From Thalassolituus maritimus (GTDB taxonomy: Bacteria; Pseudomonadota; Gammaproteobacteria; Pseudomonadales; Oceanobacteraceae), in the NCBI RefSeq assembly GCF_900156675.1, contig NZ_FTOH01000004.1, positions 191,820 through 255,819 on the forward strand: 64,000 bases of DNA, given 5' to 3'. Positions 9,200-53,174 of the stretch are shown in pieces. Below the pieces are notes generated by a model. That model did no database searches, was not told where the DNA came from, and worked only from the letters and a program-made list of their open reading frames with translations. The first letter of the stretch is position 1; every line of letters starts with the position of its first letter. A program made the translations under genes and the position numbers.

Positions 9200-10294
9200 A
9201 TGAGCACTTCAGCCTCAACAACGAACACCCTTTTCAAGCCTCTGAATCTTGGTTCGCTTGAAATCCCCAATCGCATCATCATGGCACCGTTAACGCGCTG
9301 CCGTGCCATCAACCATCTGCCCAATGAGCTGATGCGTGAGTATTACACCCAGCGTGCCAGCGCAGGCCTGATCATCACTGAATGCACTATGGTCACACCA
9401 CAGACATCGGCCTTTGCCAGTGAGCCTGGTATCTACTCTGACGAACAGGTTGCCGAGTGGAAAAAAATCACGGATTCAGTTCATGCCGCTGGCGGGCGGA
9501 TATTCATGCAGATCTGGCACGCAGGTCGTGCAGTGCACCCTGAGCTTAATGATGGAAAACCCGCCGTCTCAGCCAGCCCGATTGCTATCGAAGGTGGGTC
9601 AACCACACCTGAAGGTCAGTTCGAATATCAGAAACCAGAAGCACTCACTGAAGATCAGATTCAGGATCTGGTTAACGACTTCCGTAAAGGCGCTGAGAAT
9701 GCCAAAAAGGCAGGTTTCGACGGTGTTGAAGTTCACGGTGCAAACGGCTACTTGTTGGATCAGTTCCTACGTGACGGTGCGAACAACCGTGACGATAACT
9801 ACGGCGGCTCATGGCACAACCAGGTTCGCTTCCTGACGGAAGTGCTGGACGCAGTCTGTGAAGTATTTACTCCTCACAGGGTCGGCGTGCGTTTCTCGCC
9901 ATTGAATAGCTTCAACGACATGAAAGACAGTGACCCGGTGGCATTGGTTAAATACCTTGCGGCACACCTGAACCCGAAGGACCTCGCCTATGTCCATCTG
10001 ATGCGCGCTGATTTTCTGGGCGAACAGAAAGCGGACGTAGTGACACCGTTCCGCTCGCTCTATAACGGCCAGGTAATTCTTAATATGGGATATAGCCCCG
10101 AAGAAGCCGCTGATACCGTCGACTCTCACAATGCGGATGCAATCGCGTTCGGCACTGCGTTTCTTGCCAACCCTGACCTGCCAGAGCGCATTCGCCAGGG
10201 AGCAGAACTCAACGAACCCGACCCGAATACCTTCTACACGCAGGATGAAAAAGGGTACACCGATTATCCAGCGTTAGAAGCAGCTGAAGCTTAA
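9200..10294 (+). CDS. nemA: Alkene reductase, Old Yellow Enzyme family (NemA-like)
   Basis: FMN-dependent NAD(P)H ene-reductase acting on activated C=C bonds such as N-ethylmaleimide and enones, or on nitro compounds. The 364-residue protein has the family N-terminus LFKPLNLGSLEIPNRIIMAP, the FMN-barrel segment FMQIWHAGRAVHPE, and the substrate-binding His179/Asn182 pair in DGVEVHGANGYLLDQFLRDG. The C-terminal half has VGVRFSPLNSF and DAIAFGTAFLANPDLPERI. Start ATG follows GAGGAG at a good distance. It is a single-gene unit closed by a strong terminator; the natural substrate cannot be read from the sequence. Confidence 0.93.
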   Translation: MSTSASTTNTLFKPLNLGSLEIPNRIIMAPLTRCRAINHLPNELMREYYTQRASAGLIITECTMVTPQTSAFASEPGIYSDEQVAEWKKITDSVHAAGGRIFMQIWHAGRAVHPELNDGKPAVSASPIAIEGGSTTPEGQFEYQKPEALTEDQIQDLVNDFRKGAENAKKAGFDGVEVHGANGYLLDQFLRDGANNRDDNYGGSWHNQVRFLTEVLDAVCEVFTPHRVGVRFSPLNSFNDMKDSDPVALVKYLAAHLNPKDLAYVHLMRADFLGEQKADVVTPFRSLYNGQVILNMGYSPEEAADTVDSHNADAIAFGTAFLANPDLPERIRQGAELNEPDPNTFYTQDEKGYTDYPALEAAEA

Positions 10295-10317
10295 TCCAAA
10301 ATACATAGTATGAGAGC

Positions 10318-10342
10318 AACGCCGGGCATTTTGCCCGGCGTT
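10318..10342 (+). terminator. Strong intrinsic terminator after nemA
   Basis: Perfect 11-bp inverted repeat AACGCCGGGCA / TGCCCGGCGTT with a 3-nt loop, 23 nt after the nemA stop. It lies between convergent genes and could also serve the RND transcript from the other strand. Confidence 0.85.
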
Positions 10343-10406
10343 ATCTGTGCACGCTGATCGAAAGATCAACTTCCAGAACGTTAAATTGAAACGCGGCTTT
10401 CCATAG

Positions 10407-39573: not shown

Positions 39574-41871
39574 TCACAGCAAGCGGATTTTGTCCATGAC
39601 GGCATTTCTTGAGAGTGTTCGCACCCTGGAATCACTGTCAAAACGGACTTTGAGGTAATCGCTGTCCTCACTGATAACAATTCCTGTCCCCAGGGTGTCA
39701 TGCACAATTCTGGTCAACTTTTTATCATCATTGAATTTGCTGTCGATCACACCGCCCGGGCGTTTCACCTGCCCGACAGTCGACGAAGCGGGTACTTCAA
39801 AACGTACTTCAAGATCCCCGGCGCCGAGGTGCGCAAGGTACGTCCCCAGCCATTGTGGTTGATAGCCGTCCTGACCGCGGAGAACGTAGGTACTGTCTCC
39901 CCGGGCTATTGCCTCGAGCAAGTCTTTCGATCGTGAAACACCCAGTTCACGCTCAAAGGTACTCGGCATCTCACGCTCTGAACACTCACGCAGAGGTTTC
40001 TCGGGCGTATCCGGCGCTAACAGATGCAGCTGCTTCCGCGCCCGGGTCATGCTGACATAGAGAAGTCTGCGTTCACTGGCGACATCGGCTGCTGTGGTGA
40101 ACTCCCCTTCAGGATGGTACGGGAAGTACTGGCCATTCAGGCCCGGGATAATCACAGTATCCCACTCCCTACCCTTGCTTTTGTGCGCACTGGTCAGGGT
40201 GACTCTCTGATCTGAGTGGTTTTTCTGCGCTTTTACTTTCTGCAGCAGTGCACGCCAGTGTTCCGATAATTCACTGGCGCTGAGGTCGGTCGTACGAGCG
40301 TAACTCATGAAGGCGCGAATGGTCTCTATGCGATCATCGCTCTGCTGTGCACTGAAGGCATTATCGCGAATGCCCTCTTCCAGCTCAGTCTGCTCTGCAT
40401 AATCTTTCAGCAGCCGCCAACCCTTCATATTGGTCAGTTCTGCGGCTGAAATAATCTGCGCACGCGTTTCAAGTTGTTGTATCTGCCATTTGCTCAGATC
40501 GTCCGGAAGCGCCTCAATCAAGGCTTCGCCGTAACCATGAGTCACAGCGCCCATTTTCTGAGCAATACGTTCCAGGAGTGCTCGTCTTACTTTTGGAAAA
40601 GGCGTCGTCAGTATGTGCAGCCAACTGTCTTCCCGACTGCGGACTGAACGCTCTGCAAAACGTCCGGACGCAATCTCCAGTAATAACCAGAAAATGCGTA
40701 ATTCCCAGGCCTCAAGAACCGAACGACTGTGATCCAGGTGATAAGGAATATCTTCCTTGAGAAGACCAAGCTCCAATGCCGCCGACAACGACCAGATACG
40801 GTGGATAACGACAATCTCTGCGTTCTCATCCTGCTCAATGGCATCCCGGATTAACTTAATACTGAAAGCAGCTTCATTCCGCACCCGGTGCAGTTTTACC
40901 CGCGTCTCGGGCGTCGTCGAATGCGACAGACCCGTGACTGCTTCGCGCTCGCGATTGTGGTAAATCAAGTGATTAGCACAGAAACTGAGGGCATGGCCGT
41001 AGCGGAAGGTATGAGGCAACTGATACGTCGTCACATCGCCAAATTCCTGAGCAAACCGGCTTACGATAAATTCGGGTTTTGAGCCACGGAACTCATAAAT
41101 CGTCTGATCTGGGTCACCGATCACGACGACATTTCCGCGCCCACCCCAGAGCATATGAAGAAGCGCCTGCTGAACATCGTTGATGTCCTGATACTCGTCG
41201 ACCAGTATCCATTGCATATGACCGCCAAAGTGATCGGCCAGCTCAGGATGCGATCGTAAACACATCACAGGGTCGTAAAGCATGTCAGAGTAACTGATGC
41301 GGTACTTCGACCGGCGCCAATCTTCAAAGCGATAAAAGAGTTCAGTGAAGATCCGGCACTCTGGCGGATAATCGAGGGTTTCCAGAACATCCGCTGCGGG
41401 CAATAGCCCTGACTTAACCAGATCAAGAAATGCCATCGCGGGCTCTACCCACTTGCGCCGCTGGGAAAGAATATCCTGACGCGTATCATCGTCTGCTATT
41501 TCCTGTAGCAAGCGCCAGACAATGTTCTCGGTCTCTCCGTCTGACAGGACCTTACCCTGCCACTGTGGCAGTGCCCCCATAGTGATCAGGCGATCATAAA
41601 TTTTCAGACCCAATGAGTGGAATGTACGAATCTGGGGAAGCGGCTGACCACTGACAAGTGATGTCAGACGCTTTTGAAAATCTTCCTGCGCCGCTTTGTT
41701 GTACATCAGCACCAGCATGCGCCGCGCTGGTACGCCATCGTGCAGACGCGCCTGAATAAAATGCGTCAGTGTCGATGTCTTCCCTGCCCCGGCCACAGCG
41801 ATCACACGTGCATGCCCCTGCTTATGGGCAACGACGGCTTGCTGTTCAAGGGTGAGTTGGGCGATGGACAC
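39574..41871 (-). CDS. UvrD/Rep-family DNA helicase
   Basis: SF1A DNA helicase, 765 residues. Motifs: Q motif LTLEQQAVV, Walker A AVAGAGKTSTL (28-32 GAGKT), ILVDEYQDIN (Walker B), VIGDPDQTIYEFRGS (motif III), LTSAHKSKGREWDTVIIPG (motif V) and RRLLYVSMTRARKQLHLL (motif VI). The C-terminal 75 residues form a small beta-rich tail (IVHDTLGTGIVISEDSDYLK, VRFDSDSRVRTL), like the PcrA/UvrD tail that contacts RNA polymerase. It is distinct from full-length UvrD and may act in repair or conflict resolution. It borders the accessory island. Confidence 0.9.
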   Translation of the reverse strand: MSIAQLTLEQQAVVAHKQGHARVIAVAGAGKTSTLTHFIQARLHDGVPARRMLVLMYNKAAQEDFQKRLTSLVSGQPLPQIRTFHSLGLKIYDRLITMGALPQWQGKVLSDGETENIVWRLLQEIADDDTRQDILSQRRKWVEPAMAFLDLVKSGLLPAADVLETLDYPPECRIFTELFYRFEDWRRSKYRISYSDMLYDPVMCLRSHPELADHFGGHMQWILVDEYQDINDVQQALLHMLWGGRGNVVVIGDPDQTIYEFRGSKPEFIVSRFAQEFGDVTTYQLPHTFRYGHALSFCANHLIYHNREREAVTGLSHSTTPETRVKLHRVRNEAAFSIKLIRDAIEQDENAEIVVIHRIWSLSAALELGLLKEDIPYHLDHSRSVLEAWELRIFWLLLEIASGRFAERSVRSREDSWLHILTTPFPKVRRALLERIAQKMGAVTHGYGEALIEALPDDLSKWQIQQLETRAQIISAAELTNMKGWRLLKDYAEQTELEEGIRDNAFSAQQSDDRIETIRAFMSYARTTDLSASELSEHWRALLQKVKAQKNHSDQRVTLTSAHKSKGREWDTVIIPGLNGQYFPYHPEGEFTTAADVASERRLLYVSMTRARKQLHLLAPDTPEKPLRECSEREMPSTFERELGVSRSKDLLEAIARGDSTYVLRGQDGYQPQWLGTYLAHLGAGDLEVRFEVPASSTVGQVKRPGGVIDSKFNDDKKLTRIVHDTLGTGIVISEDSDYLKVRFDSDSRVRTLSRNAVMDKIRLL

Positions 41872-42090
41872 TGGTAACGGACTCAGGATGCAGAATCAAG
41901 GAAACCCCGAATGTTACGGAGTGACCTGTGTGGATGCAATTCAAAACAATAAGCGGATACCCGAAAGCCACGTCACAGACACCTGTGAAACTTGCGAAAC
42001 CTAGACAGCCAACGCTGACAGATTGAAGCGTATCTGAAGAATAAAGCAGCAATGGCTGAAGCCGCAAAGCAACAAACAAACACCGAGATG

Positions 42091-42109
42091 CCCCCCCCCC
42101 CAAAAAAAA
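42091..42109. repeat. Homopolymer junction: 11 C then 8 A
   Basis: An uninterrupted run of eleven C followed by eight A within the 485-bp gap 41872-42357. Such tracts slip during replication and are also error-prone in sequencing. A 60-codon open frame (42052-42231, plus strand) runs across it but shows no family similarity, so I do not call a gene. Confidence 0.8.
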
Positions 42110-42161
42110 CGACAGAGAAAGGGATTCGGGCAGTATTAATGGCTCTGATAAGTTCTGAAGT

Positions 42162-42250
42162 TATACGTTCTCTCAAGCTGCGTGGGTGCAGAGAACAGAG
42201 TATAGACACCGCGCACCCTATGCGTAGCCCCTGAATGGGGCTTCTTGTAT
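42162..42250 (+). ncRNA. Candidate structured small RNA with terminator-like end
   Basis: TATAC plus GTTCTCT (42162-42173) pair with AGAGAAC plus GTATA (42190-42204, 3-nt bulge), forming a long hairpin. It is followed by AGCCCC-TGAAT-GGGGCT (42226-42242) and TTCTTGT, terminator-like on the plus strand. No coding sequence explains them. A small RNA is one reading; a terminator of an unseen transcript is another. Confidence 0.35.
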
Positions 42251-42357
42251 CCGGGGCAATTCGGGCAGGACTATAAAAAGCTGTTTGGTGAAATGCTGTC
42301 GGAGACGTTAAAAAACGCTAGTGAAGTCTTCACGGTCGGTTAATACCCACTGGCAGA

Positions 42358-43575
42358 TCAGTGAGTATCAATCAGTTCTGCTGTCGCCGGGTCGTATACG
42401 ACCCCCTCTATCCGTTCCGAGCGTACTCGCTCGACTGCATCGTCGATGACGTTCAACGGCACTAAAAACCACTCCCGTGGCTTCACTTGCTTGCCAAAAC
42501 GATCAGGAATAGTCAGATCTAACTGGGCCGGTGCAAATAGCCGGTGCAACAAATTTTCAAGTTTGGTGCGATTTATACCAGCAAGTTTATAAGTCGCGAC
42601 GATATCGACTTTAGCCAACAGATACGTTGCGTCGTTCTCAGCATTGGCTATGCGCGCTTCTACCCTTCCGCCGGTAACACCTATTTTATGAATCAGGTCA
42701 CGATGGCTCGCGACCGTCGGATGATCTGACTGGCTGCGAAGTACATAGATGGTGCCACTTTCGACATCCTCATCCCCCCACTGATCGCTAAACAAAGGGC
42801 CAGCGTCGGGCTCGGTCACACGCCGGCCAGTATCATCTTTGTACAGTGCTCGAATCAACGATCGGCGCAGAATATTGCTCTCGGTACCATTGGAGTAAAT
42901 CACGCGCAAGCGGGCATCGTTGTCTCCGTTCGGCGCTTTAATAGTCTCACCGACCTCAGCGACATACGCTATCTGACCGCCCAGAATAAACAGATTGGTT
43001 CGCTCGATGCTGGCATCTTCTTTAAAGCGCCGGGTTACGCGTAATCCATTTTTAATCTCGCGCTCCACCCGCTCAAAAATAGGCTGGAAGTCGTCAAAAT
43101 CTTCACATGTTTCACGCTTAGCTACTTCGTCAACTTCGCGCTTTTGCGCCGCACTGCGCACATGCTTAAGCTCGGTTAATGAACCTCCAGCAATCTCACC
43201 CAACTCAGCCAGAAGCTCATCATCACTCGGGCTGGAAGATTCATCGTTACCGTACCCCGGAGGCTCTTCTCTTACACTTGACACTGCATCCGACGCCCCC
43301 GATTCAGCAGTCCCATTCAGTATCCCCTGGTGATCCAGCGGCGTTAGCAATTCTGCGCACTCTGGTAACGCACGCAAACGATCTAAGCGCGTGGCATACA
43401 AGCGCTCAAAGATATCGCCACTCTCACCATGTTGCGGAATGCGTTTGTGCTCATCGTAAAAGCGTTGAATATCCTCAAAACCCGCAACAATACGCTGCTC
43501 TTTCGCTGACAGCGTTTGTTTTTTCTCTGGCTTTGCATACTCATCAAGCTCTGCACGCAGATCATCAAGATCCAT
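42358..43575 (-). CDS. GIY-YIG nuclease-domain protein of the restriction-like cassette
   Basis: 405-residue protein from ATG 43575, chosen because GAGG lies 9 nt upstream; the start overlaps the helicase stop by 11 nt. The N-terminal two thirds are charged and helical (AEQRIVAGFEDIQRFYDEH-like text), ending in a beta segment. The C-terminus is a GIY-YIG nuclease of the T5orf172/MUG113 type: TIYVLRS (about 275-281), HKIGVTGG (296-303), Arg308 in EARIANAE, Glu340 in RTKLENLLHRLF. It would be the DNA-cutting part of the cassette. Last gene of the operon. Confidence 0.82.
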   Translation of the reverse strand: MDLDDLRAELDEYAKPEKKQTLSAKEQRIVAGFEDIQRFYDEHKRIPQHGESGDIFERLYATRLDRLRALPECAELLTPLDHQGILNGTAESGASDAVSSVREEPPGYGNDESSSPSDDELLAELGEIAGGSLTELKHVRSAAQKREVDEVAKRETCEDFDDFQPIFERVEREIKNGLRVTRRFKEDASIERTNLFILGGQIAYVAEVGETIKAPNGDNDARLRVIYSNGTESNILRRSLIRALYKDDTGRRVTEPDAGPLFSDQWGDEDVESGTIYVLRSQSDHPTVASHRDLIHKIGVTGGRVEARIANAENDATYLLAKVDIVATYKLAGINRTKLENLLHRLFAPAQLDLTIPDRFGKQVKPREWFLVPLNVIDDAVERVRSERIEGVVYDPATAELIDTH

Positions 43576-45646
43576 CGTAGCGACCCTCATCTTTAAATCG
43601 AACGAAGGCAGCTGCGCCTTCGGCCATTGTTTTTTCCCAGGCATCCTGCGCGCCGATAGACGGCAAGCGTCCGCGTTCCTTCTTGAATTTCATTGCCCGT
43701 AGTGCCAACTCTTTCGCCTCTTCCGGGGTAAGGCGGGTCTTTTTCGCCGCAATCGCCGCAGCGACCTGCTTTAACGTATCTTCATTCATCGCGACCGACA
43801 GGATCGAATACGCCTCGCTGAATGGGTTGATACTGTCGATCAGGTCAATATCCAGCTCGCGCACGTCCATCGAGAACTTACGAATCCCCTGAATCAGCGC
43901 CGTATTTGGAGCTGGGTCTCCAGGTGTCACAGGGTCAATCAATATGCCATCCTGATCGGCGATATCCAACGCAACCTGCTTACCCTGCTGAATCAGGTTC
44001 AACGCCGTAATCGCGTGCTGACGTACAGCCTCCTGATCTTCATCATCCAGTTCTGGGTACCGCTCTTTGATGATCTTACCCATACGCACCTGAGTCAGCT
44101 CTTGCGGTACGGTTTCTTCATCAAACAAGCCGCGCTCAATGGTCGGCTTGTCCTGCACAAAGGTCGCGATCACCTCGTTCAGATCCTCGCGACAGATGCG
44201 CGTTGCCTCGTCACTTTTCGGCATTGCAAGACCGTTAATTTCGATCTGGAACTGGCCTGTGTCGTGGTTGAAGCCGACGTTGGTTTTCTCAGGATCATAA
44301 CCGCCATCTCCGTAATCAAACCCGGGGGTTGGTTCGTTCGTAGGATTCTTAGGGCGGAACTCAAACCGTGGAGCCAATACCTGCTCCATCAACAAACTTG
44401 CCGCAATCGCTTTTAACGTATCGTTAATCGCTTCGGTTACCGCCTCTTCGCTGGCATCCGGTTCAGCAATCAGATTCGTAAATCGGGCTTTGGTTTTACC
44501 CGGTGCATCGCGAGTAGCCCGACCAATGATCTGTACTACCTCAGTCAGGCTGGAGCGATAGCCTACCGTCAGGGCGTGTTCGCACCAGATCCAGTCAAAA
44601 CCTTCTTTCGCCATACCCAGCGCGATAATGATGTCGACATGATCGCGGTTATTCTTCTGTTTCGGATCTTTCAGCGAGGCAGACACCTTGTCACGCTTAC
44701 TGGCATCGTCATCAACCAGATCGGCAATCCTTAGAATGCGACCCGACTTAGTCTTTACCAACTGAAAGCCTGTGTTGTCATCCGTGCCCTGCCATTCACC
44801 CAGCTCTTCAATGATGTGTTCAACTTCGCGGATTTTATCTTTGGTGCTTTCACGCGAGTTAACACTCGGAATATGAATAATGGTTTTCTCATCCGGGTTC
44901 AGTACTTTCAGCAAGTCATCTGCATACGGGCCTGTATAAAAGAAGTAGCCAATATCAAGTGTCTTCAGGTACTCATACCCATTAAGCTGCTCGTAATAGG
45001 TGTAAGACACAGGCACAAAGCGGGCCTCATCCTCAGGCGCCATAACGGCTTCAGCATCACCTCTGAAGTATGAACCCGTCATCGCGACAATATGCACCTT
45101 ATCACGGGCCATCAGTTCGGCCAGTTGTGCCCCCAAACGGTTCTCGGGATTAGCCGACACATGGTGAAACTCATCCACGGCAATCAGGCAGTCATCAAAC
45201 GCCTCTACCCCAAACTTCTCGACAGCATTACGGAAGGTCGCATGCGGGCAGACCAATACCTGTTCGTCTCCTGCCAGAAAGCTGCCTACCGAATCCGCCT
45301 TACTGCCCTCACCGGGGCTGTTACACAGGTTCCACTTCGGTTCTACATGCCAGTCAGCCCAGAAGCCGAACTTAGTCAGCGGCTCGTCAGCAAAGCTGGA
45401 GCCGATGGATTTCTCCGGTACCGTGATAATTGCCTTGCGCAACCCTTGGTTATGCAGTTTATCCAGCGCGATAAACATCAGCGCCCGGCTCTTACCAGAG
45501 GCCGGTGGCGACTTGATCAACAAGTATTGCTCACCCCGGTACTCATAGGCGCGCTCCTGCATCGGGCGCATACCCAGCTCGTTGGATTTATTGGTCTTAC
45601 CGCTCTGCGCGTAAGACACCGATACAGAAGGAACATGTTTATTCAT
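43565..45646 (-). CDS. SF2 helicase of the restriction-like cassette
   Basis: 693-residue DEAD/DEAH-type ATPase similar in layout to restriction-enzyme translocases. Motif I is SPPASGKS (46-53), motif II DEFHH (158-162), motif III MTGSYF (189-194) and motif VI QIIGRATRD (372-380). The C-terminal 250 residues are helical and of unknown fold. There is no nuclease motif, so cutting is left to the overlapping GIY-YIG gene. It follows a 247-bp gap containing tandem repeats, and its ATG at 45646 has AGGCGAAAG nearby. Confidence 0.87.
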   Translation of the reverse strand: MNKHVPSVSVSYAQSGKTNKSNELGMRPMQERAYEYRGEQYLLIKSPPASGKSRALMFIALDKLHNQGLRKAIITVPEKSIGSSFADEPLTKFGFWADWHVEPKWNLCNSPGEGSKADSVGSFLAGDEQVLVCPHATFRNAVEKFGVEAFDDCLIAVDEFHHVSANPENRLGAQLAELMARDKVHIVAMTGSYFRGDAEAVMAPEDEARFVPVSYTYYEQLNGYEYLKTLDIGYFFYTGPYADDLLKVLNPDEKTIIHIPSVNSRESTKDKIREVEHIIEELGEWQGTDDNTGFQLVKTKSGRILRIADLVDDDASKRDKVSASLKDPKQKNNRDHVDIIIALGMAKEGFDWIWCEHALTVGYRSSLTEVVQIIGRATRDAPGKTKARFTNLIAEPDASEEAVTEAINDTLKAIAASLLMEQVLAPRFEFRPKNPTNEPTPGFDYGDGGYDPEKTNVGFNHDTGQFQIEINGLAMPKSDEATRICREDLNEVIATFVQDKPTIERGLFDEETVPQELTQVRMGKIIKERYPELDDEDQEAVRQHAITALNLIQQGKQVALDIADQDGILIDPVTPGDPAPNTALIQGIRKFSMDVRELDIDLIDSINPFSEAYSILSVAMNEDTLKQVAAAIAAKKTRLTPEEAKELALRAMKFKKERGRLPSIGAQDAWEKTMAEGAAAFVRFKDEGRYDGS

Positions 45647-45740
45647 ATCTTTCGCCTAAATTCTTAAAAGTTACCCTGGCTGATTGATCGGGCCTCGTGC
45701 CCGAACTGTGTGTTTGTAACTGAGCTGTCACGCTGACTAA

Positions 45741-45868
45741 GCGGAACCGCGCAATACCGCGCAATACCGCGCAATACCGCGCAATACCGCGCAATACCGC
45801 TCAAAACCGCTCAAAACCGCTCAAAACCGCTCAAAACCGCCCATAACTGCCCATAACTGCCCATAAGC
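45741..45868. repeat. Exact 10-bp tandem repeats in three subtypes
   Basis: About 13 units of exactly 10 bp: one degenerate GCGGAACCGC, five GCAATACCGC, four TCAAAACCGC and three ending CCATAACTGC-like. Units within a subtype are identical, so they expanded stepwise. The array sits between the HEPN gene and the helicase start in the defence-like operon. A GGGC hairpin (45689-45703) lies between the array and the helicase start. Ten-bp phasing places each unit on the same DNA face. Confidence 0.9.
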
Positions 45869-45893
45869 AAGACTCAGTCCACTCGCAATACAT

Positions 45894-46727
45894 TCATAAA
45901 CGAGTACCTGCGACACTTGCCAATGCAGCCTTTAAAACCTGAATACACACCCTAGCAGTATGCTCGTCAGGAGAAAAACGGGATGCCATTTGCTCATATG
46001 GGTGAATATAATTACGAAAATCTCGAAGGCCATGACTGAACTTTTTAACATCTGGCTTCAGAAATCCAACCTCACAAGCAACGTCAATGAACTGCGACAG
46101 AGTCCACTCGTGGAATGGTCGAACACGCTTATCCATCACTTTGGGACTGGCAGAAGCCTGATTAAACTTTTGTGGATACTTTTGGGCCAATCCAAGCAGC
46201 ACTCCCTCCAGTACACTACCGCATAAAAAAATTGTCGAAAGGTATGCACTGGCGCCCATTGCAAGCCGCACTTCATTCAGCCGAGACTCAATAATAGGTA
46301 CTGCCAATGGCTCTATTGGTAAATTCCGAATATCTGGCAGTGAAAACTCTATATCGAGAAAATTGGAATCTCCTTCAGAAGGAGAATCAGAAGAGCTTAC
46401 AGGGAGGAGTCTATGAACGATGCAACGAGCCTTTTCAAGTGCTAAGACATCGACTGGGTGCCCACTGAGGTGATGCGTTGCTTCATAGAGATCAAGCATG
46501 TCACCTAAGACAGAGCCGACTTTATCGTCTGGCATCTGCTCCCAGAAGGAACGCAATTTCTTTGCCTTCGAAGTACCGTAGGTCTGATATTGGATCGCGT
46601 GAATATCTACGCCCTTGGCATTAAAAAACTCACCATATGTCGCATCATTAAAATCAAGCACATACCCCGATTGCATTCCAAACAGCTTCTCAAAATAGAG
46701 TTTCTCCGCTGATGTTAATGAACTCAC
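45894..46727 (-). CDS. AbiJ-like N-terminus plus HEPN-type protein in methyltransferase operon
   Basis: 277 residues from GTG 46727, which has AAGGAG at 7 nt within the end of the methyltransferase gene; a TTG at 46733 overlapping the stop is too close to that site. The N-terminal 80 residues (LTSAEKLYFEKLFGM, SGYVLDFNDATYGEFF) resemble, from memory, the domain found at the front of AbiJ-type abortive-infection proteins. The C-terminal helical part has R235-x6-H242 in LRDFRNYIHPYE, the R-x4-6-H catalytic motif of HEPN RNases. Predicted role: RNase effector in phage defence. This is inference; no exact homologue can be named. Confidence 0.65.
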   Translation of the reverse strand: MSSLTSAEKLYFEKLFGMQSGYVLDFNDATYGEFFNAKGVDIHAIQYQTYGTSKAKKLRSFWEQMPDDKVGSVLGDMLDLYEATHHLSGHPVDVLALEKARCIVHRLLPVSSSDSPSEGDSNFLDIEFSLPDIRNLPIEPLAVPIIESRLNEVRLAMGASAYLSTIFLCGSVLEGVLLGLAQKYPQKFNQASASPKVMDKRVRPFHEWTLSQFIDVACEVGFLKPDVKKFSHGLRDFRNYIHPYEQMASRFSPDEHTARVCIQVLKAALASVAGTRL

Positions 46728-46729
46728 AT

Positions 46730-49486
46730 TCAAGCTCCTTTTTTACCCGCCGTCATCTTACTGTACATCTCAAACAGCTTTTCCAGCCGTTCGGTGTCGT
46801 TGCGGAAGCGGCGACCAATGTAGATGCGTTCCAGCACTTCATCGTTGCGTTCATGGGCGGCGCGCAGATCGTCGGGCATAGCATCAGGTTTGTAGAGGTC
46901 AGCAATGGTCGCCGGAAAGTGGCGTTCGCGGGCGAGCAGAATATCTTCCGCGCAGCGGGTCAGGTCTTCTTTGTTTTTCTCCGTAAGCTTAGGCACGGGG
47001 AAAGTGTTCCAGCCCATAGTGTTGGAATATCTATAACGTGTTTCCAGCTTGCCACAAACCGTACCGATCCAGACCAGATGAATCCGGGAAGCGATCAGAG
47101 CCATATTCCAGAGAGGGGCGTCGAAAAGTGCAAAGGCACTGCCATAGATAATGGTAGATCCACTCTCGATAGATACTGGCAAGTACTCTCTATTTTCAGA
47201 GGAATGAACAGGTAAAACGATGATCTGGTTTTCGTTACCACTCTGTCGGATCTCATCGAACCGGTAAGGCCGCTCTGCAGACTTATTAGTAGCAACCTTT
47301 TTACTAGACAGTCGCATTTCTCTTACCGATTCTATTCTGGCTCTAACATCAGGTATAGATTTGGCTAGTTCATAGTTACTCTCATCAATCCATAAGCAGA
47401 ATCGCGGTGTTCCCGATATCGACTCATTAGAACCGACAAAAGGGCGAATCAGTTGATCTGCGCACTGGCTACGAGAGCAAATTTCATCCTTTTCGGAGCG
47501 AGAGAGAATAAGATTCCCCCCATCTACTGGGTAATTCCCTTTCACCATGTTAGATAATCCGAAAGGGGAGGCTTTAACAGCGGTTAAAGAATCATAACGC
47601 CCTGGTATAAGATATGGATTTATACAATCAACATACTTTACTTCAAGCTCCCCTTGTTTACCGATTGAGTAGATTCGACAACCTTGATTATTAGAATTCG
47701 ATAAACCAATGATAATTACGGTAACCCCCGCATTATTCGCAGCCAAATTAGACCACTTGAAGCTCAAGTGTGCGAAATCAATTTTGATGCCGAGTCTAAA
47801 CAACTCTGGCCATATCAGTGGAACTTGCTGTCCCTGACAAATTGAGTTTGTAGTTACAAACGCAGTAGCAACTTGGCCGAAACGACCGTATTCAGCAGCT
47901 TTAAATAACCAACCGGACACATAATCCATTGCTTTCCAGGAATTTATTCTCCCATCAAACATTGCTTTCATATCTAGCTTATGTTGCTTATCTTGCTCGC
48001 GAGTTCCAATATAGGGAGGGTTCCCACAAATATACGTCTCTCCACCCTCGTTATCAAAATCTATTTCAGCTTGATCTAGTGGAGTTTCAAAAAGATCATC
48101 CGCAATGGTCTTGACCCCGGTACCGGTAGGCGGACAAATGCTCAGCCAATCAAGCCTCAGGGCGTTACCACAGGTAATCCAGTTTTCTGCATTGAGTGGC
48201 AGGAACTCCAGCAATGCTTCACGCTGCCCACGATAGAGAACATCACATTGGTATTCGGCAATAATCAAAGCCAGACGGGCGATCTCGGCGGAAAAGTCAC
48301 GCAATTCGATACCGCGAAAATTGGTGAGTGGAATATCGCTTTTGCGACCCGGTTCACCTCGGCGTTCGTTGATGGTATGTTCAATCTCGCGCATTTGCTT
48401 GTAGGCAATCACAAGAAAATTACCCGAGCCACAGGCTGGGTCAAATACTCGAATGCGCGCGATGCGTTTGCGCAGGTTTAACAATTTACGCGGGTTATCG
48501 CCCGCTTCTTCGAGTTTCTTGCGCAGGTCATCTAAAAACAGTGGATTCAGCACTTTAAGGATATTGGGCACGCTGGTGTAGTGCATGCCCAGCTCGCCGC
48601 GCTCTTCGTCGTCGGCAACGGCCTGAATCATAGAGCCAAAGATATCCGGGTTGATCTGTGTCCAGTCGAGGTTACCGATGTGCAGCAGATACGAACGGGC
48701 GATTTTGCTGAAGCGTGGCACATCCGTACTGCCTGAAAACAGACCGCCATTTACGTACGGGAAGTTATTAGCCCAAGAGCGCAGGCCTGAGCCATCGCGG
48801 TCTGCCAGCTTGGTGTTCATCGCTCGGAACATCTCACTGATCACTTCATGAGTATTAGAACTGTCGCGGGCGCTCATCTGCTCGATGGTGGCGGTAAACA
48901 AGTCGGTGCCAAGAAAGATATCGGTGTCTTCGGCAAAGAAGCAAAAGATCAGCCGCGCCATAAAGTGGTTCATTTCATGGCGTTGGTCTGCCGTGCCCCA
49001 CTCCGGGTTGTCTTTTAACAGCTCGACATATAAGCGGTTTAAACGACTGGTCGCGCGTATATCAAAGGCGTTGTCGCGTATCTGCTTGACGGTACTGATA
49101 CCGGCCAGTTGCAAGAAGAAGCTGAAGTGGTCCGGAAACTTGGCGTAGTCACAGGCCACAGTCTCGCCGCTATCAATGGCTTCGGCCTGAAACGAATCGC
49201 CATCTGTTGCCAGAATAAACTTCACTTTGTTCTTAGCGGTGGCCGGGCTGTCGTGCAGTGCTTTTAAGGACTCGTCTACCTTACCCGGCTCGCTGACTAG
49301 TATATGAATATTGTTGCGTTGCAGCACACCGCCCACATCCGACTTATTGCTGCTGCCGGACTTGAGCTTTTTGATGGTGGTTTCTTTGTTACCAAACGCG
49401 CGCAGAAACTCATAGGGGAACTCAAGCGCATCGAATGACTGCATGGCCAGATCAGAGATGGCGATTTCGATTTCTACAGCGTTCAC
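46730..49486 (-). CDS. MmeI-like DNA methyltransferase of restriction-like cassette
   Basis: Large class I SAM-dependent adenine-type DNA methyltransferase, 918 residues, GTG start. Motif I is FDPACGSGNF (348-357), catalytic motif IV is GNPPYIG (488-494). The regions before and after match MmeI-family text (MNHFMARLIFCFFAEDTDIF; C-terminus LYKPDAMPDDLRAAHERNDE). The N-terminal 150 residues hold no D-ExK nuclease centre that I can see, unlike MmeI itself. The presumed target-recognition part (about 650-820) is more A/T-rich than the flanks, as if swapped. Start overlaps the HTH stop (GTGA). Confidence 0.88.
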   Translation of the reverse strand: MNAVEIEIAISDLAMQSFDALEFPYEFLRAFGNKETTIKKLKSGSSNKSDVGGVLQRNNIHILVSEPGKVDESLKALHDSPATAKNKVKFILATDGDSFQAEAIDSGETVACDYAKFPDHFSFFLQLAGISTVKQIRDNAFDIRATSRLNRLYVELLKDNPEWGTADQRHEMNHFMARLIFCFFAEDTDIFLGTDLFTATIEQMSARDSSNTHEVISEMFRAMNTKLADRDGSGLRSWANNFPYVNGGLFSGSTDVPRFSKIARSYLLHIGNLDWTQINPDIFGSMIQAVADDEERGELGMHYTSVPNILKVLNPLFLDDLRKKLEEAGDNPRKLLNLRKRIARIRVFDPACGSGNFLVIAYKQMREIEHTINERRGEPGRKSDIPLTNFRGIELRDFSAEIARLALIIAEYQCDVLYRGQREALLEFLPLNAENWITCGNALRLDWLSICPPTGTGVKTIADDLFETPLDQAEIDFDNEGGETYICGNPPYIGTREQDKQHKLDMKAMFDGRINSWKAMDYVSGWLFKAAEYGRFGQVATAFVTTNSICQGQQVPLIWPELFRLGIKIDFAHLSFKWSNLAANNAGVTVIIIGLSNSNNQGCRIYSIGKQGELEVKYVDCINPYLIPGRYDSLTAVKASPFGLSNMVKGNYPVDGGNLILSRSEKDEICSRSQCADQLIRPFVGSNESISGTPRFCLWIDESNYELAKSIPDVRARIESVREMRLSSKKVATNKSAERPYRFDEIRQSGNENQIIVLPVHSSENREYLPVSIESGSTIIYGSAFALFDAPLWNMALIASRIHLVWIGTVCGKLETRYRYSNTMGWNTFPVPKLTEKNKEDLTRCAEDILLARERHFPATIADLYKPDAMPDDLRAAHERNDEVLERIYIGRRFRNDTERLEKLFEMYSKMTAGKKGA

Positions 49487-49713
49487 TTGTGTGTATTCCC
49501 TTCGTTTGCCGCTTCGGCTTTTAGTTCTAACAGTTCGGTGATGTCACATCTCAGGTAAACACAGAGTTGTTCGAGTACATCAAACTCTACTCTCACGGCT
49601 GTTTCCTGATACAGGCGGGTGATGGTGCCGCGGTTGATACCCGTATCCCGGGCGACGTCAGCGATTTTGAGCTTTTGCTCGCCCATGATGCGGGATAGGT
49701 GACACTTAATCAT
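49483..49713 (-). CDS. Small XRE-family HTH regulator of the cassette
   Basis: 76-residue Cro/C1-type DNA-binding protein: KLKIADVARDTGINRGTITR is the HTH, followed by LEQLCVYLRCDITELLEL. It is the first gene of the cassette and overlaps the methyltransferase start by four bases. A perfect 15-bp palindrome lies 17 bp upstream of its start, so self-regulation like a restriction controller protein is likely. Confidence 0.88.
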   Translation of the reverse strand: MIKCHLSRIMGEQKLKIADVARDTGINRGTITRLYQETAVRVEFDVLEQLCVYLRCDITELLELKAEAANEGNTHK

Positions 49714-49730
49714 CTCTGAAAGCCCTTTTT

Positions 49731-49745
49731 GATCTTCTGAAGATC
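49731..49745. promoter_or_regulatory. Palindromic operator upstream of HTH gene
   Basis: GATCTTC-T-GAAGATC, a perfect 7+1+7 palindrome, 17 bp upstream of the HTH start. The best candidate for binding by the HTH protein and control of the whole cassette. It contains GATC twice, so Dam-type methylation, if present, could affect it. Confidence 0.65.
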
Positions 49746-49872
49746 ATATTGATTCGCAAAAATTGGGTTTACTGTACTAGAGGTAGAGTGGTGTGTCACA
49801 GGGTTTGTAGGTAATGTCTCAACTGGTATCATCAACGCCCTGCAATGCTGACTGAACTCTCACGGACGACTG

Positions 49873-50727
49873 ATGCTTAAACGACTTTTTGCTACCCGCA
49901 AGCACCCCTATATGCCTGGCCTGAATACGCCAGAGCAGATTACCGTCAACTTGTCGGGGTCCGTGCTGTCACTCAAGCTGCCGCCCCATTATCGTTCAGA
50001 TGGGTTTGAAGCACATTGCGACCCTATCGAGGCGATGAATATCTACGACCCCACCGGTTACGGTGGTGATCCGGTGGGCACGGCGGTCTTTAACAGCAAG
50101 CGTTTTATCAGCCGTCAATGGGAGTTTTTTGGGCCGCTTACCCGGCTGCGGTATATTGGATCAATATCCTTTGTGGCCGTGGTGGAACGCATAGACAGCT
50201 TACCCGAGGGTATGAGTTGCTTTAACCCTAACCACTTTGAACAGGTGATTAACCGTCTGATATTTAAAATGGGGCCGGAGACACCTCAGATAGCTAAGAA
50301 GATTGCACCGGTCAACTGGCGTACCGAAGTGAAGAATGGCTGTTTATGGCTGTATTACGAGATACACAAGGCCGACGATGCCGATCCAGAGAGTCAGTTC
50401 TCAAGCTATGCGGTCACGCCACTGGATGATCATCACTATATCCGCTTGATGTTTCATAATCTGGGGAACAAGCCCTCTGAACATTCCAACCGTTTTGTTA
50501 ACAGTGTACGAGACAAAGTACTGAACTCTGTCACTCTTACGTTGAGTGAGTACGCTCAGCAGCGAAAGGCTGAAGTCAATTCTCAGTGGCCGGACGCAAC
50601 CATATCACCACAACGCCAACCTTATAACTGGATATACCCTGAGTGGCGTGATGGAGACACCAGTAAGGGCGAGCGCCATGTCGTTATCACCCAATATCAC
50701 ACCCAGCCGCCCAAGTTTCATTTGTGA
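49873..50727 (+). CDS. Hypothetical protein, first of an unrecognised pair
   Basis: 284-residue cytoplasmic protein with no family I recognise. It has no signal peptide or membrane helix. Notable stretches are ITVNLSGSVLSLKLPPHY, FISRQWEFFGPLTRLRYIGS and LDDHHYIRLMFHNLG, suggesting a beta-sandwich core, followed by a helical segment (HSNRFVNSVRDKVLNSVTLT). It diverges from the HTH gene and is followed after 23 nt by another unknown. Its position could make it an immunity or partner protein, but no feature proves this. Confidence 0.6.
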   Translation: MLKRLFATRKHPYMPGLNTPEQITVNLSGSVLSLKLPPHYRSDGFEAHCDPIEAMNIYDPTGYGGDPVGTAVFNSKRFISRQWEFFGPLTRLRYIGSISFVAVVERIDSLPEGMSCFNPNHFEQVINRLIFKMGPETPQIAKKIAPVNWRTEVKNGCLWLYYEIHKADDADPESQFSSYAVTPLDDHHYIRLMFHNLGNKPSEHSNRFVNSVRDKVLNSVTLTLSEYAQQRKAEVNSQWPDATISPQRQPYNWIYPEWRDGDTSKGERHVVITQYHTQPPKFHL

Positions 50728-50750
50728 TTTTATTAAGTAAAGGACTGCCC

Positions 50751-51911
50751 ATGAACGGAAGCACAGCAAAGAGCCCCTTGGTTGCCATCATTACTGAACG
50801 TGATAGCAGTAATATCTGCCGCCCGGTATATATGGCGGAGAAACAATATGAACAGTGGAAGTTTATTAAGCAAAACCACAACGGCAACTATTACCTGACG
50901 AATTTAATACGGGCACTCTATGATCTGGCGGCCTGCCCGGGCGGGCGCACTCATGCTGCCATTCAGCAAAAGATATTTGGCCCCTTTATTATGCACTACA
51001 GCCTGGCGCAGGCAGACCGTATTGAATTGATTGCCCTTAAAGTGGACCAGAGTCTGGTTTCGGTTGAAGGACAATCTCCCGGCTTGTACAAATCTGAGTG
51101 GATTCGTGAGGAAGGTAACTGGATAACGCAAGATGGGTTAAAAGGAAAAATGGACTTATCCCACCAATGGAAAGGCGCGCATACCGCAGCTATTCCCGGG
51201 AAATTCGATGGGAAAAGAGATGCTGGCCGGATTATTGGTGACCACATCACCAAGGCCTATCGCGCAGCCTTCAGTGCGTCTGAGGTACAATCACAAGGTA
51301 ATCACTTTTCGTTGTTCTGGATGAACAACGACTTTAAGGATCGTGCCCATGTTGAGAGCATTGTGTCCTTTATTCAGCAGGCAAAATTAAAAAACACCTC
51401 TGTGCGTTGGTTGGTCCATGGTGAAGCCGCTGGTGTGTTTGTGGAAGCGGTTACATATCTGAGTACCCAGCCTCAAGCTGGAGTATTGAAAGACACTGCA
51501 AGCAACCTGGTAAAACAGTCGGTCTTCTTCTCGAATCCCCGTGGCAAAGACTGCCGCGAGAAGCAATTGGAAGCACTGTGTGAAAAAGTCGGCCTGAATT
51601 ACGTAGGCACCAAAATCAACGACTTCGACATTCTGTTTAACGGTGACGCGCGGGATAAGTTCACTGATAAAGCCATCAGCGCCGGAGGCGTTATGGGCCT
51701 GAGTGGTGTCACAGGGTACGTTGGCTATACCGCACTCTCAACTGGCTATGATGCCATCATGGCAGGCAGCTCTATCGCTACCACCATGGTCATGGGCACG
51801 TCGGCGTATGTTTTAGCCAAAGATAAAGCGACCACGTTTGGCGGTTACGCACGCAACCTGCCTAAAGTCGTTTCTTCGGCACTGGGTAAGGGTAATCAAC
51901 AGTGGCATTAA
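50751..51911 (+). CDS. Hypothetical protein, second of the pair, hydrophobic C-terminus
   Basis: 386 residues from ATG 50751, preceded by AAAGGA at 6 nt (an upstream GTG at 50724 is less likely). The first 300 residues look soluble (WFLVHGEAAG-like text WLVHGEAAGVFVEAVTYL in a helix-turn; FSLFWMNNDFKDRAHVE before it). From about residue 310 come Gly/Ala-rich hydrophobic stretches (AISAGGVMGLSGVTGYVGYT, MAGSSIATTMVMGTSAYVLA) that could insert in a membrane. Ends at a strong terminator. Function not assigned; secreted-effector-like layout is only a guess. Confidence 0.6.
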   Translation: MNGSTAKSPLVAIITERDSSNICRPVYMAEKQYEQWKFIKQNHNGNYYLTNLIRALYDLAACPGGRTHAAIQQKIFGPFIMHYSLAQADRIELIALKVDQSLVSVEGQSPGLYKSEWIREEGNWITQDGLKGKMDLSHQWKGAHTAAIPGKFDGKRDAGRIIGDHITKAYRAAFSASEVQSQGNHFSLFWMNNDFKDRAHVESIVSFIQQAKLKNTSVRWLVHGEAAGVFVEAVTYLSTQPQAGVLKDTASNLVKQSVFFSNPRGKDCREKQLEALCEKVGLNYVGTKINDFDILFNGDARDKFTDKAISAGGVMGLSGVTGYVGYTALSTGYDAIMAGSSIATTMVMGTSAYVLAKDKATTFGGYARNLPKVVSSALGKGNQQWH

Positions 51912-51945
51912 CCGAACAATTTTTGCTTTAAAACTCACGCACAAA

Positions 51946-51967
51946 AAAGCCCCGTTTCCGGGGCTTT
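51946..51967. terminator. Bidirectional intrinsic terminator
   Basis: AAAGCCCCG-TTTC-CGGGGCTTT, perfect 9-bp stem, with an A-run before and T-rich sequence after. It separates the unknown pair from the convergent alkB-like gene and can serve both. Confidence 0.88.
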
Positions 51968-51995
51968 CGATTTAAGCAATGTTCCTGTTTTAAGC

Positions 51996-53174
51996 TTACG
52001 CCTGCTGAGCTGATACCTGGCCATGCTCTGTCAGCGCTTTAATGCCACTGATGCGGTTCGCTTCGGCGGCCAGTACCTTCTCTTCGTCGCTGGCGTATTT
52101 CTCATCCCACTCCAGCACTTTTGGCGTCATCAGGTGGTGCCACAGCGGTGGGATCAGGGCGACGACGATGGTAGTCAGGTAGCCATTGATCATAGTCGGT
52201 GCTTCTGGGTATGGGCGCAGGTCCTGGTATGGGACTTCACCGTGTGCGTGGTGGTGAGAATGACGGGTCAGGTTGAACATGGTCCATGACGAGAAGCGCT
52301 TGTTGGTGTTCCATGAGTGACGTGGCTGCACTGGCAGTTCTGGGTTACGAACCATGCCGTAGTGTTCCATGTAATTTACGATTTCCAGCAGGGCTTTACC
52401 GAACAGGCCAGCACCGATGAACATCAACATGGTTTCTACACCACCAGCCAGGAATGCCAGTGCAACAATGATGGCACTCATACCGTAACCACGCAGTACC
52501 GAGTTACGGATCGACAGTGGGCTGTGACCCATTTTACGTAGACGCTCAGCTTCGAGTTTCAGTGCGCTGATGTTGCCTTTAATGGTCGATGCCAATACAT
52601 GGAAATATACGTTACGGCCACGAGGCGCAGTCGCAGGGTCTTTGGTGGTACTGACATAACGGTGGTGACCGTAAACGTGCTCAACGGCGAAAGCGACGTC
52701 AAAGCTGAAGGCGAGCAACCAACGGCCTACAAACATAGAGATCGGATCCCAAGTGCGGTGTGTCAGTTCGTGTGCCGTAATGGTACCCACCATACCAATC
52801 ATCAGGCCGGTAATAATCAGAGCGCACAGGTTAGATACCCATGAACCTTCGGCTTTCGCGGCCAGCACATCGTAGCCAGTCAGGCTGGTGAGCATTTCAC
52901 CCAGACCAAACAGGTCGCCGGAACTCACCTGCCAGAAATAAGAGAATACAATCAGCGACAGTAGTGGCAGCGCCAGCCAGAGCTGTGCTGTCAGAATACC
53001 AGGATGCTTAAATGCTGGCGTCGTGGTGTCATCCCCCAACACGGCGTCCAACACAATATAACCACCGAAAATGGCGATCAGACCAAAAATTATCCAGTCG
53101 CTGCCCAGAAACATTGCCGCTGCCGCAAGCAGGCCGATGGCGTGGAAAAGAAAATATTTGAGATAGTGGAACAT
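51996..53174 (-). CDS. alkB: AlkB-family membrane di-iron hydroxylase
   Basis: Integral-membrane non-heme di-iron monooxygenase, 392 residues. All four histidine clusters are visible: HELTHR (135-140), EHVYGHHR (165-172), NYMEHYG (267-273) and RHSHHHA (304-310). Six hydrophobic segments surround them. It follows a gene for an electron-transfer reductase of XylA type by 49 nt, as in XylMA and related pairs, so substrates could be medium-chain alkanes or alkyl aromatics. The sequence does not separate these. The symbol is for the family, not a proven alkane substrate. Confidence 0.87.
   Translation of the reverse strand: MFHYLKYFLFHAIGLLAAAAMFLGSDWIIFGLIAIFGGYIVLDAVLGDDTTTPAFKHPGILTAQLWLALPLLSLIVFSYFWQVSSGDLFGLGEMLTSLTGYDVLAAKAEGSWVSNLCALIITGLMIGMVGTITAHELTHRTWDPISMFVGRWLLAFSFDVAFAVEHVYGHHRYVSTTKDPATAPRGRNVYFHVLASTIKGNISALKLEAERLRKMGHSPLSIRNSVLRGYGMSAIIVALAFLAGGVETMLMFIGAGLFGKALLEIVNYMEHYGMVRNPELPVQPRHSWNTNKRFSSWTMFNLTRHSHHHAHGEVPYQDLRPYPEAPTMINGYLTTIVVALIPPLWHHLMTPKVLEWDEKYASDEEKVLAAEANRISGIKALTEHGQVSAQQA

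What the first reader, a model, noticed from the sequence alone, without database searches (positions are those of the whole stretch)
42358..49745. Restriction-like cassette with a coupled candidate RNase: HTH, MmeI-like methylase, AbiJ/HEPN protein, SF2 helicase, GIY-YIG nuclease
Five minus-strand genes are closely linked: HTH and methylase share GTGA, the HEPN-like gene starts 2 nt after the methylase stop with its own AAGGAG, and the helicase and nuclease genes overlap by 11 nt. The methylase lacks a visible nuclease centre, so DNA cutting is probably done by helicase plus GIY-YIG protein. Methylase-helicase-nuclease sets with an HTH gene are familiar restriction layouts; the inserted HEPN-type protein would add RNA cleavage, giving a two-layer defence in one operon.
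Basis: partly seen in the sequence, partly recalled or inferred. Interest (0 to 1): 0.8.

Follow-up and report, generated by a model that had tools for sequence, protein, structure and literature searches.

The report
Restriction operon with swappable toxin slot

Summary
The five genes are there as described. The core is a known kind: MmeI-like methylase without nuclease centre, SF2 helicase and GIY-YIG (T5orf172) nuclease, i.e. DnmA-YeeB-YeeC, plus an HTH gene. The inserted 277-aa protein is most likely a HEPN RNase: R238, N239 and H242 are kept in 25 of 25 distinct sequences; nothing supports the AbiJ label. HEPN is a minority passenger (3 of 78 best genome cassettes), but its position is not random: in 45 of those 78 the methylase-helicase junction is filled (YhcG, RhuM, PLD-like, Schlafen-like, BrnT, PIN, AbiE, HEPN and others; 20 labels in all samples). 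The helicase-nuclease junction is interrupted in 1 of 118. Of 61 filled cassettes, 42 have cargo starting 4 nt inside the methylase stop. The closest relative (95% identical helicase) has the same cassette with HEPN replaced by a Schlafen-like gene; homology breaks at the methylase stop codon. The same HEPN family sits between hsdS and hsdR of type I systems (2 loci), behind an hsdS remnant (2) and ahead of GajAB (2). Best reading: an R-M operon with an exchangeable effector slot, here loaded with a second-line RNase. RNA cleavage, and silencing by the R-M complex as for PrrC, are inferred, untested.

The parts
49483..49713 (-). HTH regulator (HTH_26/Cro-C1 type), 76 aa, overlaps methylase start by 4 nt
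   Evidence: a homologue is present in closest relative L045
46730..49486 (-). MmeI-like m6A DNA methyltransferase (DnmA/YeeA-like), 918 aa; motif I DPACGSGNF and motif IV NPPY kept, no conserved N-terminal nuclease motif seen
47137..47718 (-). stretch of the methylase around its target-recognition part with no DNA match in nearest relative L045; flanks match
45894..46727 (-). cargo: HEPN-type candidate endoRNase, 277 aa; N-terminal domain (about 1-110) plus C-terminal HEPN-type domain with R235/R238-N239/H242-P243
45729..46731 (-). cargo slot: homology with L045 stops at the methylase stop codon (46732) and resumes at 45728
45746..45866 (-). 10-nt tandem array (GCGGTTTTGA / GCGGTATTGC units, preceded by GGGCAGTTAT units) between cargo and helicase
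43565..45646 (-). SF2 helicase/translocase (YeeB-like), 693 aa; K52, D158, E159, H161, R376, R379 in 132 of 132 rows
42358..43575 (-). T5orf172/GIY-YIG nuclease (YeeC-like), probable start ATG at 43575 (first ATG 43644); Y300, K320, G322, R331, E363 in 128 of 128 rows, H367 in 127 (numbered from first ATG)

Best explanation
This is a DnmA-YeeB-YeeC restriction-modification cassette whose methylase-helicase junction is an exchangeable effector slot, here loaded with a HEPN RNase. Shown by sequence: the cassette, the slot, its position specificity among near relatives, cargo exchange in a near relative, and conservation of the HEPN motif residues. Inferred: the methylase marks its site; unmarked DNA is translocated by the helicase and cut by the GIY-YIG protein; the HEPN protein is made with the methylase, stays quiet while the R-M complex works, and cuts cellular RNA (abortive arrest) when a phage blocks or escapes restriction, as PrrC does in the EcoprrI system. 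The N-terminal domain of the HEPN protein is the likely sensing or docking part, because the same domain is joined to a different (Abi_C) C-terminal domain in proteins that, in two of three plasmids inspected, lie within two genes of other R-M genes.
For: Core families and conserved catalytic residues. Slot: 63 of 123 cassettes with both gene ends have >120 nt between methylase and helicase (45/78 genome contigs, 7/11 class sample, 10/33 viral, plus the window), against 1 of 118 with >120 nt at the helicase-nuclease junction; 42 of 61 filled cassettes have the first cargo start 4 nt inside the methylase stop (38 ATGA, 2 GTGA, 2 TTGA by first possible start; the window counts here by its TTG, by its likely GTG it is 2 nt after). 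Swap: L045 same cassette, HEPN replaced by a SLFN_AlbA_2/HATPase_c_4 protein, break at methylase stop. Turnover: cargo labels need 55 changes on the helicase tree of 121 rows, 200 shuffles mean 60.0 (57-61); 5 HEPN rows, 5 changes. HEPN: R238, N239, H242, P243 25/25; highest Foldseek probabilities are 1ufb (0.72, TMt 0.66) and 1wol (0.44, titled HEPN homologue). Same family between hsdS and hsdR, in L199 and L038; starting in the stop of an hsdS remnant in L200/L201; ahead of gajA-gajB in L036/L037. Shared N-terminal domain with Abi_C proteins near R-M. Type I loci share cargo families in 8 of 18 usable loci.
Against: HEPN is in only 3 of 78, 1 of 11 and 1 of 33 related cassettes and 60 of 123 cassettes have no insert over 120 nt, so the core does not need it. 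L036/L037 carry it with GajAB and no R-M gene was found, L200/L201 keep it with only an hsdS remnant, so it can exist without a working R-M partner. The cargo label shows slightly fewer changes than every shuffle, so some descent signal remains. Foldseek E-values are all above 1, the first rows by E-value are unrelated proteins, and the motif loop has pLDDT under 50. No experiment shows RNA cleavage or coupling; B. subtilis DnmA-YeeB-YeeC showed no phage or plasmid restriction in the tests reported (PMC9973331, PMC7261158 passages). [quoted passage not shown]
Confidence: 0.62

Rival explanations
1. Independent embedded module: the HEPN protein is its own stand-alone abortive-infection system that merely shares promoter and transfer with the R-M cassette; it senses phage by itself and is not controlled by the R-M proteins.
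For: HEPN occurs ahead of GajAB (L036/L037) and after only an hsdS remnant (L200, L201); cargo families are diverse, hard to reconcile with one shared control; embedded TgvAB did not depend on HsdR activity (PMC11411939 passages).
Against: Strict position and 4-nt overlap; the N-terminal domain recurs near several unrelated R-M types.
Confidence: 0.28
2. Addiction or gene-retention cargo: the slot collects toxins and TA modules that make loss of the cassette costly; phage defence is secondary.
For: Toxin and TA families in the slot: BrnT, PIN, ParE-like (sub-threshold), AbiEii with DUF6088; fast turnover.
Against: 52 of 61 filled cassettes hold a single ORF of 90 aa or more, so most have no obvious partner, though small antitoxins were not sought; 60 of 123 cassettes persist without insert.
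Confidence: 0.12
3. HEPN is a non-catalytic or structural RNA-binding part, or a decaying passenger, with no role in defence.
For: Weak fold-search scores; motif reads as R-x6-H or R-x3-H, so the arginine partner is uncertain; one copy in the sample (L039) is interrupted.
Against: R238, N239, H242, P243 kept in 25 of 25 distinct sequences down to about 26% identity; open frame in the window.
Confidence: 0.1

Closest known systems
DnmA-YeeB-YeeC (Bacillus subtilis yeeABC; homologues reported in Vibrio crassostreae)
   Same: MmeI-like methylase without nuclease motif, SF2 helicase, T5orf172/GIY-YIG protein, same order (PMC9973331 passages and section 8, PMC7261158 passages)
   Different: window adds HTH and a HEPN gene between methylase and helicase; section 8 of PMC9973331 puts yeeB and yeeC at the 1st and 2nd positions after dnmA and mentions no slot between dnmA and yeeB
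PrrC/EcoprrI (anticodon nuclease embedded in a type Ic hsd locus)
   Same: HEPN RNase gene inside an R-M operon (PMC3710099 passages); that prrC lies between hsdS and hsdR is recalled
   Different: PrrC carries an ABC ATPase and belongs to a type I system; here there is no ATPase domain match, and silencing by the R-M complex is untested
Type I R-M with defence genes embedded between hsdS and hsdR (TgvAB, DarTG2)
   Same: one junction used as a site for embedded defence genes (PMC11411939, PMC12255303 passages); RhuM, Schlafen-like, FRG, DUF3800 and DUF559 relatives shared
   Different: host R-M is DnmA-YeeB-YeeC, not HsdMSR
Abi_C (PF14355) abortive infection family proteins
   Same: N-terminal domain about 1-110 shared, 38.9% and 41.7% identity over that part in two plasmids (H8, H3; alignment)
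   Different: C-terminal domain differs; window protein has no Abi_C match at E<=1

Membership tests
DnmA-YeeB-YeeC cassette | MmeI-like methylase with MTase motifs | tested here: met
DnmA-YeeB-YeeC cassette | no PD-(D/E)xK nuclease motif in the methylase N terminus | tested here: inconclusive
   N-terminal residues around E66 not conserved (E66 25 of 102, K69 5 of 101), which fits absence; but the MmeI chain 5hr4 aligns only from its residue 107, so the MmeI catalytic residues themselves were not compared
DnmA-YeeB-YeeC cassette | YeeB-type SF2 helicase followed by T5orf172/GIY-YIG nuclease | tested here: met
   GIY downstream in 118 of 123 cassettes
DnmA-YeeB-YeeC cassette | m6A methylation and restriction of unmodified DNA | not testable with these tools
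   needs methylome and plaque tests
HEPN RNase superfamily | conserved Rx4-6H-type catalytic motif | tested here: met
   R235-x6-H242: R235 24/25 (K in L038), H242 25/25; R238 and N239 25/25 give a shorter R-x3-H; motif definition from PMC3710099 passages
HEPN RNase superfamily | all-helical HEPN fold | tested here: inconclusive
   HEPN structures have the highest probabilities, but E>1 and motif loop pLDDT<50
HEPN RNase superfamily | metal-independent RNase activity | not testable with these tools
   bench assay needed
AbiJ | AbiJ N-terminal domain or AbiJ family match | tested here: not met
   no Pfam hit at E<=1, none in PADLOC or NCBIfam at E<=0.1
PrrC-like guard of an R-M system | HEPN gene embedded in an R-M operon | tested here: met
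PrrC-like guard of an R-M system | fused ABC ATPase (PrrC/RloC architecture) | tested here: not met
   277 aa, no ATPase match
PrrC-like guard of an R-M system | silenced by R-M complex, released by antirestriction | not testable with these tools
   needs co-expression and antirestriction tests
Type IIG/IIL (MmeI) single-protein R-M | nuclease domain in the same polypeptide | tested here: inconclusive
   PADLOC calls it REase_MTase_IIG, but the N-terminal region shows no conserved nuclease-like motif; MmeI's own catalytic residues were not aligned

The most novel reading that the evidence does not exclude
DnmA-YeeB-YeeC is a general chassis: the methylase-helicase junction is a dedicated, translationally coupled effector slot, drawing on the same cargo pool as the hsdS-hsdR slot of type I systems, and the state of the R-M complex gates whichever effector is loaded, so restriction failure triggers a swappable second strike (RNase here, Schlafen-like in the nearest relative).
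Probability: 0.3. Interest if true: 0.78.

Novelty: new variant of a known kind. Interest (0 to 1): 0.58.

Why it matters
DnmA-YeeB-YeeC was called a non-functional R-M relic in B. subtilis (PMC9973331 passages); the relatives here keep the helicase and nuclease catalytic residues that I checked and load toxin-like and other genes into one junction, which suggests working, fast-evolving defence. It gives natural swap pairs (window/L045 and others) in which mainly target recognition and cargo differ, a ready test of whether an R-M core controls unrelated effectors. It also names about 20 cargo labels, several without annotation, as candidates for guilt-by-embedding.

Tried and rejected
AbiJ membership: no family support. 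Solved-structure sequence search with the HEPN profile listed, in the 60 of 96 matches shown, only influenza HA2 or hemagglutinin chains (E 0.003 and up) against profile positions about 37-128, the variable N-terminal half; judged a chance match and not used. Idea that recognition domain and cargo move together as one block: not supported; TRD identity has medians of 40.6% (same cargo) and 41.4% (different). Single origin of HEPN-bearing cassettes: not supported, 5 HEPN rows need 5 changes (L004 left out, its helicase is cut). Fold of the unannotated 260-aa cargo (C2): confident model (pLDDT 86.3) but no PDB match at E<=0.001. Rfam on 41800-52000, gathering threshold: none. Array pattern GAGCGGTTNTGAGCGGTTNTGAGC: in 274 genomes of the class sample only the window's genome, only this array; viral contigs none. 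Promoter and terminator scans 42000-50000: no more than shuffles. Corrected while checking: one search printed only five ORFs either side of HEPN, so I first took L198 as lacking the helicase and L200/L201 as free of R-M; one search found the helicase and nuclease in L198 and an hsdS remnant in L200/L201. The 120-nt limit and the cargo labels are mine; members of a label were joined by single linkage at E<1e-5 and only representatives were named by Pfam. Starts are the first ATG/GTG/TTG, so the 4-nt figures are mechanical. L149 and L158 have a gap but no ORF of 90 aa or more; the L108 ORF is probably spurious.
Full report
What is there. Pfam names HTH_26, five MmeI domains, DEAD and T5orf172; the middle protein (277 aa from GTG 46727) has no hit in Pfam, PADLOC, NCBIfam or PHROGs at the limits used. 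Its start matches that of full-length homologues (MSSL). A 10-nt tandem array lies in the 247 nt between its stop and the helicase.

The core is known in kind. An MmeI-like methylase without a nuclease motif, an SF2 helicase and a T5orf172/GIY-YIG protein in that order are DnmA-YeeB-YeeC of B. subtilis (PMC9973331, passages and section 8; PMC7261158, passages). Those passages report m6A at GACGAG, no restriction by the B. subtilis set under the conditions tested, and, citing other work, V. crassostreae homologues whose deletion raised sensitivity to some phages. In the relatives collected here the machine looks intact: in 132 helicase rows K52, D158, E159, H161, R376 and R379 are invariant; in 128 nuclease rows Y300, K320, G322, R331 and E363 are invariant and H367 is kept in 127; in 104 methylase rows DPACGSGNF and NPPY are kept in nearly all (91 to 104 per position), while the N-terminal positions around E66 are not conserved. 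PADLOC's label REase_MTase_IIG fits the methylase family; whether any self-cutting remains was not tested against MmeI's own residues.

The inserted protein is a candidate HEPN RNase. Among 25 distinct sequences, the window included (12 of full length, 13 alike in the C-terminal half), R238, N239, H242 and P243 are kept in all and R235 in 24. The motif can be read as R235-x6-H242 or R238-x3-H242. The AlphaFold2 model (12 sequences) has mean pLDDT 75.7, with residues 238-248 below 50. Foldseek against the PDB gives 54 matches, none with E below 1, and by E-value the first two rows are unrelated; but the highest probabilities are 1ufb (0.72; that it is a HEPN protein is recalled) and 1wol (0.44, titled HEPN homologue), with AbiA, Csm6, Csx1-Crn2 and a HEPN toxin at 0.15 to 0.28. 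Fold is thus likely, not proved.

The position is a slot. I scanned genome contigs with an alignment of eleven helicases and kept the best 80 loci, plus 11 relatives among 369 class genomes and 43 viral loci. Where the methylase end and helicase start are both present, more than 120 nt separate them in 45 of 78, 7 of 11 and 10 of 33 cassettes; with the window, 63 of 123. The helicase-nuclease junction, measured the same way, exceeds 120 nt in 1 of 118 (L031). Of 61 cassettes with a cargo ORF of at least 90 aa, 42 have it starting 4 nt inside the methylase stop (38 of them ATGA); 52 hold a single such ORF. The window is one of the 42 only by a TTG two codons upstream; by its likely GTG it starts 2 nt after the stop. 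Cargo falls under 20 labels: YhcG/DUF1016 (9), RhuM (8), an unannotated 260-aa family (7), PLD-like (7), HEPN (6 with the window), an unannotated 137-aa family (6), Schlafen AlbA_2 with HATPase_c_4 (5), BrnT (3), an unannotated 287-aa family (3), CoiA-like (2), and singletons including DUF559, PIN, T5orf172, DUF4351, FRG with DUF3800, ParE-like, and AbiEii with DUF6088. The PLD, ParE and cargo-T5orf172 names, and CoiA in one of two, rest on scores below Pfam's cut-off. PADLOC lists RhuM, YhcG and one singleton (L118) as defence candidates PDC-S05, PDC-S02 and PDC-S67.

Cargo is swapped, cores are kept. The nearest relative, L045, has a 95% identical helicase. DNA similarity runs from just upstream of the HTH gene into the methylase, pauses around the recognition domain (47718-47137), stops at the methylase stop codon (46732), and resumes 82 nt before the helicase; HEPN is replaced by a 556-aa Schlafen-like protein. 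Other near pairs behave alike: L047 with cargo and L048 without (99% identical helicases), L095 and L086 with different cargo (99%), L152 with RhuM and L153 without (98%). On the helicase tree of 121 rows (FastTree) the cargo label needs 55 changes; 200 shuffles gave a mean of 60.0 (range 57-61). So turnover is close to random, with a weak but real trace of descent (55 is below every shuffle). The five HEPN rows need five changes. The recognition domain varies just as freely, with no detectable link to cargo.

Where else this HEPN family lives. HEPN-centred searches (35, 390 and 398 genomes, overlapping sets; viral contigs) gave nine full-length copies, the window included. Three are in DnmA cassettes: the window, L004 (helicase cut off by what follows in the contig), and L198, where HEPN follows the methylase with a 4-nt overlap, some 6.3 kb of further genes come next, and helicase and nuclease follow. 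Two lie between hsdS and hsdR of type I systems (L199, L038); L038 has an Abi_C gene there as well. Two (L200, L201, close relatives) start 4 nt inside the stop of a short in-frame hsdS 3' remnant (29 matched residues, E about 2e-6), with no other hsd gene found in the stretch. Two (L036, L037, identical HEPN proteins) lie directly ahead of GajA and GajB (L036 tested). One further copy (L039) is interrupted. Helicase-centred searches added L026, L084, L099 and L102. PrrC, an R-M-embedded HEPN RNase, is kept silent by its R-M partner until phage antirestriction frees it (PMC3710099 passages). In a small survey, 25 of 143 genomes had an hsdR match (29 places); I fetched 20 and 18 were usable (L241 and L249 cut). 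In 8 of 18 a gene upstream of hsdR matches a DnmA cargo family: RhuM in L233, L238, L243, L245, L247; Schlafen-like in L236, L242; FRG in L248; DUF3800 (L238) and DUF559 (L236) as well. The RhuM matches cover only about 116-130 residues, and in L245 no hsdM or hsdS was seen upstream; L250, L251 and L252 have no cargo between hsdS and hsdR.

A separable front domain. Residues 1-110 are shared, at 38.9-41.7% identity, with abortive infection family proteins on plasmids whose C-terminal domain is Abi_C. Of three such plasmids inspected, one has the gene directly after a type ISP enzyme, one has it two genes after an Eco57I-type methylase and BsuBI/PstI nuclease pair, and one shows no clear R-M neighbour. 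That the front domain links an RNase to R-M status is an inference.

Mechanism and rivals. I take the cassette as R-M with an embedded second-line effector (0.62). Whether the R-M proteins control it, as with PrrC, or whether it acts alone, as TgvAB largely does inside a type I operon (PMC11411939 passages), is open. Embedding of defence genes in R-M operons is known (PMC12255303, PMC3710099 and PMC11411939 passages), and at least 16 HEPN clades were already linked to R-M neighbourhoods (PMC3710099 passage). I saw no report of the methylase-helicase slot of DnmA systems: the searches were made, of which I read passages of five papers (one section in one of them) and otherwise only listings; the library holds only openly licensed papers, and the 2024 preprint on embedded defences, Morgan 2009 and Makarova 2011 were not readable here.

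Setting. The UvrD-like gene (39574-41871) was found in 8 of 9 genomes of the genus, the window's included; I fetched the stretch from 5 of the other 7. It and the alkane-monooxygenase-like gene (51996-53174) are neighbours with 93 and 123 nt between them in two (L195, L197), have about 5.3 kb of other genes between them in two (L194, L196), and in one (L193) the UvrD gene is followed by other genes and a type I specificity and restriction gene, the monooxygenase not being reached. So the cassette sits at a variable insertion site. The monooxygenase name is from reading the sequence, not from a call.

Noticed in passing
45746-45866; L045 7783-7858; same spacer in L052, L053, L062, L074, L121: 7 of 17 cassettes with more than 60 nt between cargo stop and helicase start carry a 10- or 11-nt tandem array there (in L062 and L121 only 1.9 copies), each with its own unit, most holding a stop codon (TGA or TAA), often as ATGA or TTGA, so that stops recur in all frames. 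All five Schlafen-like cargos have one. Function unexplained (termination-reinitiation relay, or recombination scar).
   Followed up: partly
41872-51995: Variable site between a UvrD-like helicase gene and an alkane-monooxygenase-like gene: empty, other genes, type I R-M or the present cassette in the six genomes of the genus compared.
   Followed up: partly
49873-50727 and 50724-51911 (+): Two overlapping plus-strand ORFs of 284 and 395 aa beside the cassette with no match in Pfam, NCBIfam or PHROGs and only chance-level PADLOC scores; the site is too short for them in L195 and L197.
   Followed up: no
39574-41871 (-): UvrD-family helicase with PADLOC GajB-model matches (E=1.7e-54); present in 8 of 9 genomes of the genus, so probably a core gene rather than Gabija.
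   Followed up: partly
36592-38325 (-): FAN1-like VRR-NUC nuclease (FAN1_HTH and VRR_NUC domains) downstream of the UvrD-like gene, with other short genes between.
   Followed up: no
L038 7330-8891: A type I operon carrying two embedded genes in a row between hsdS and hsdR, the HEPN homologue and an Abi_C protein.
   Followed up: no
L198 4577-10856: A DnmA cassette whose slot holds HEPN plus about 6.3 kb of further ORFs, two of them (9393-9722 and 9703-10797) looking by eye like a HigBA-type pair.
   Followed up: partly
49731-49745: Palindrome GATCTTCAGAAGATC before the HTH start; L045 keeps the ATGATCTT and CAG(A/G)AGAT halves with 51 nt between them; possible operator.
   Followed up: no
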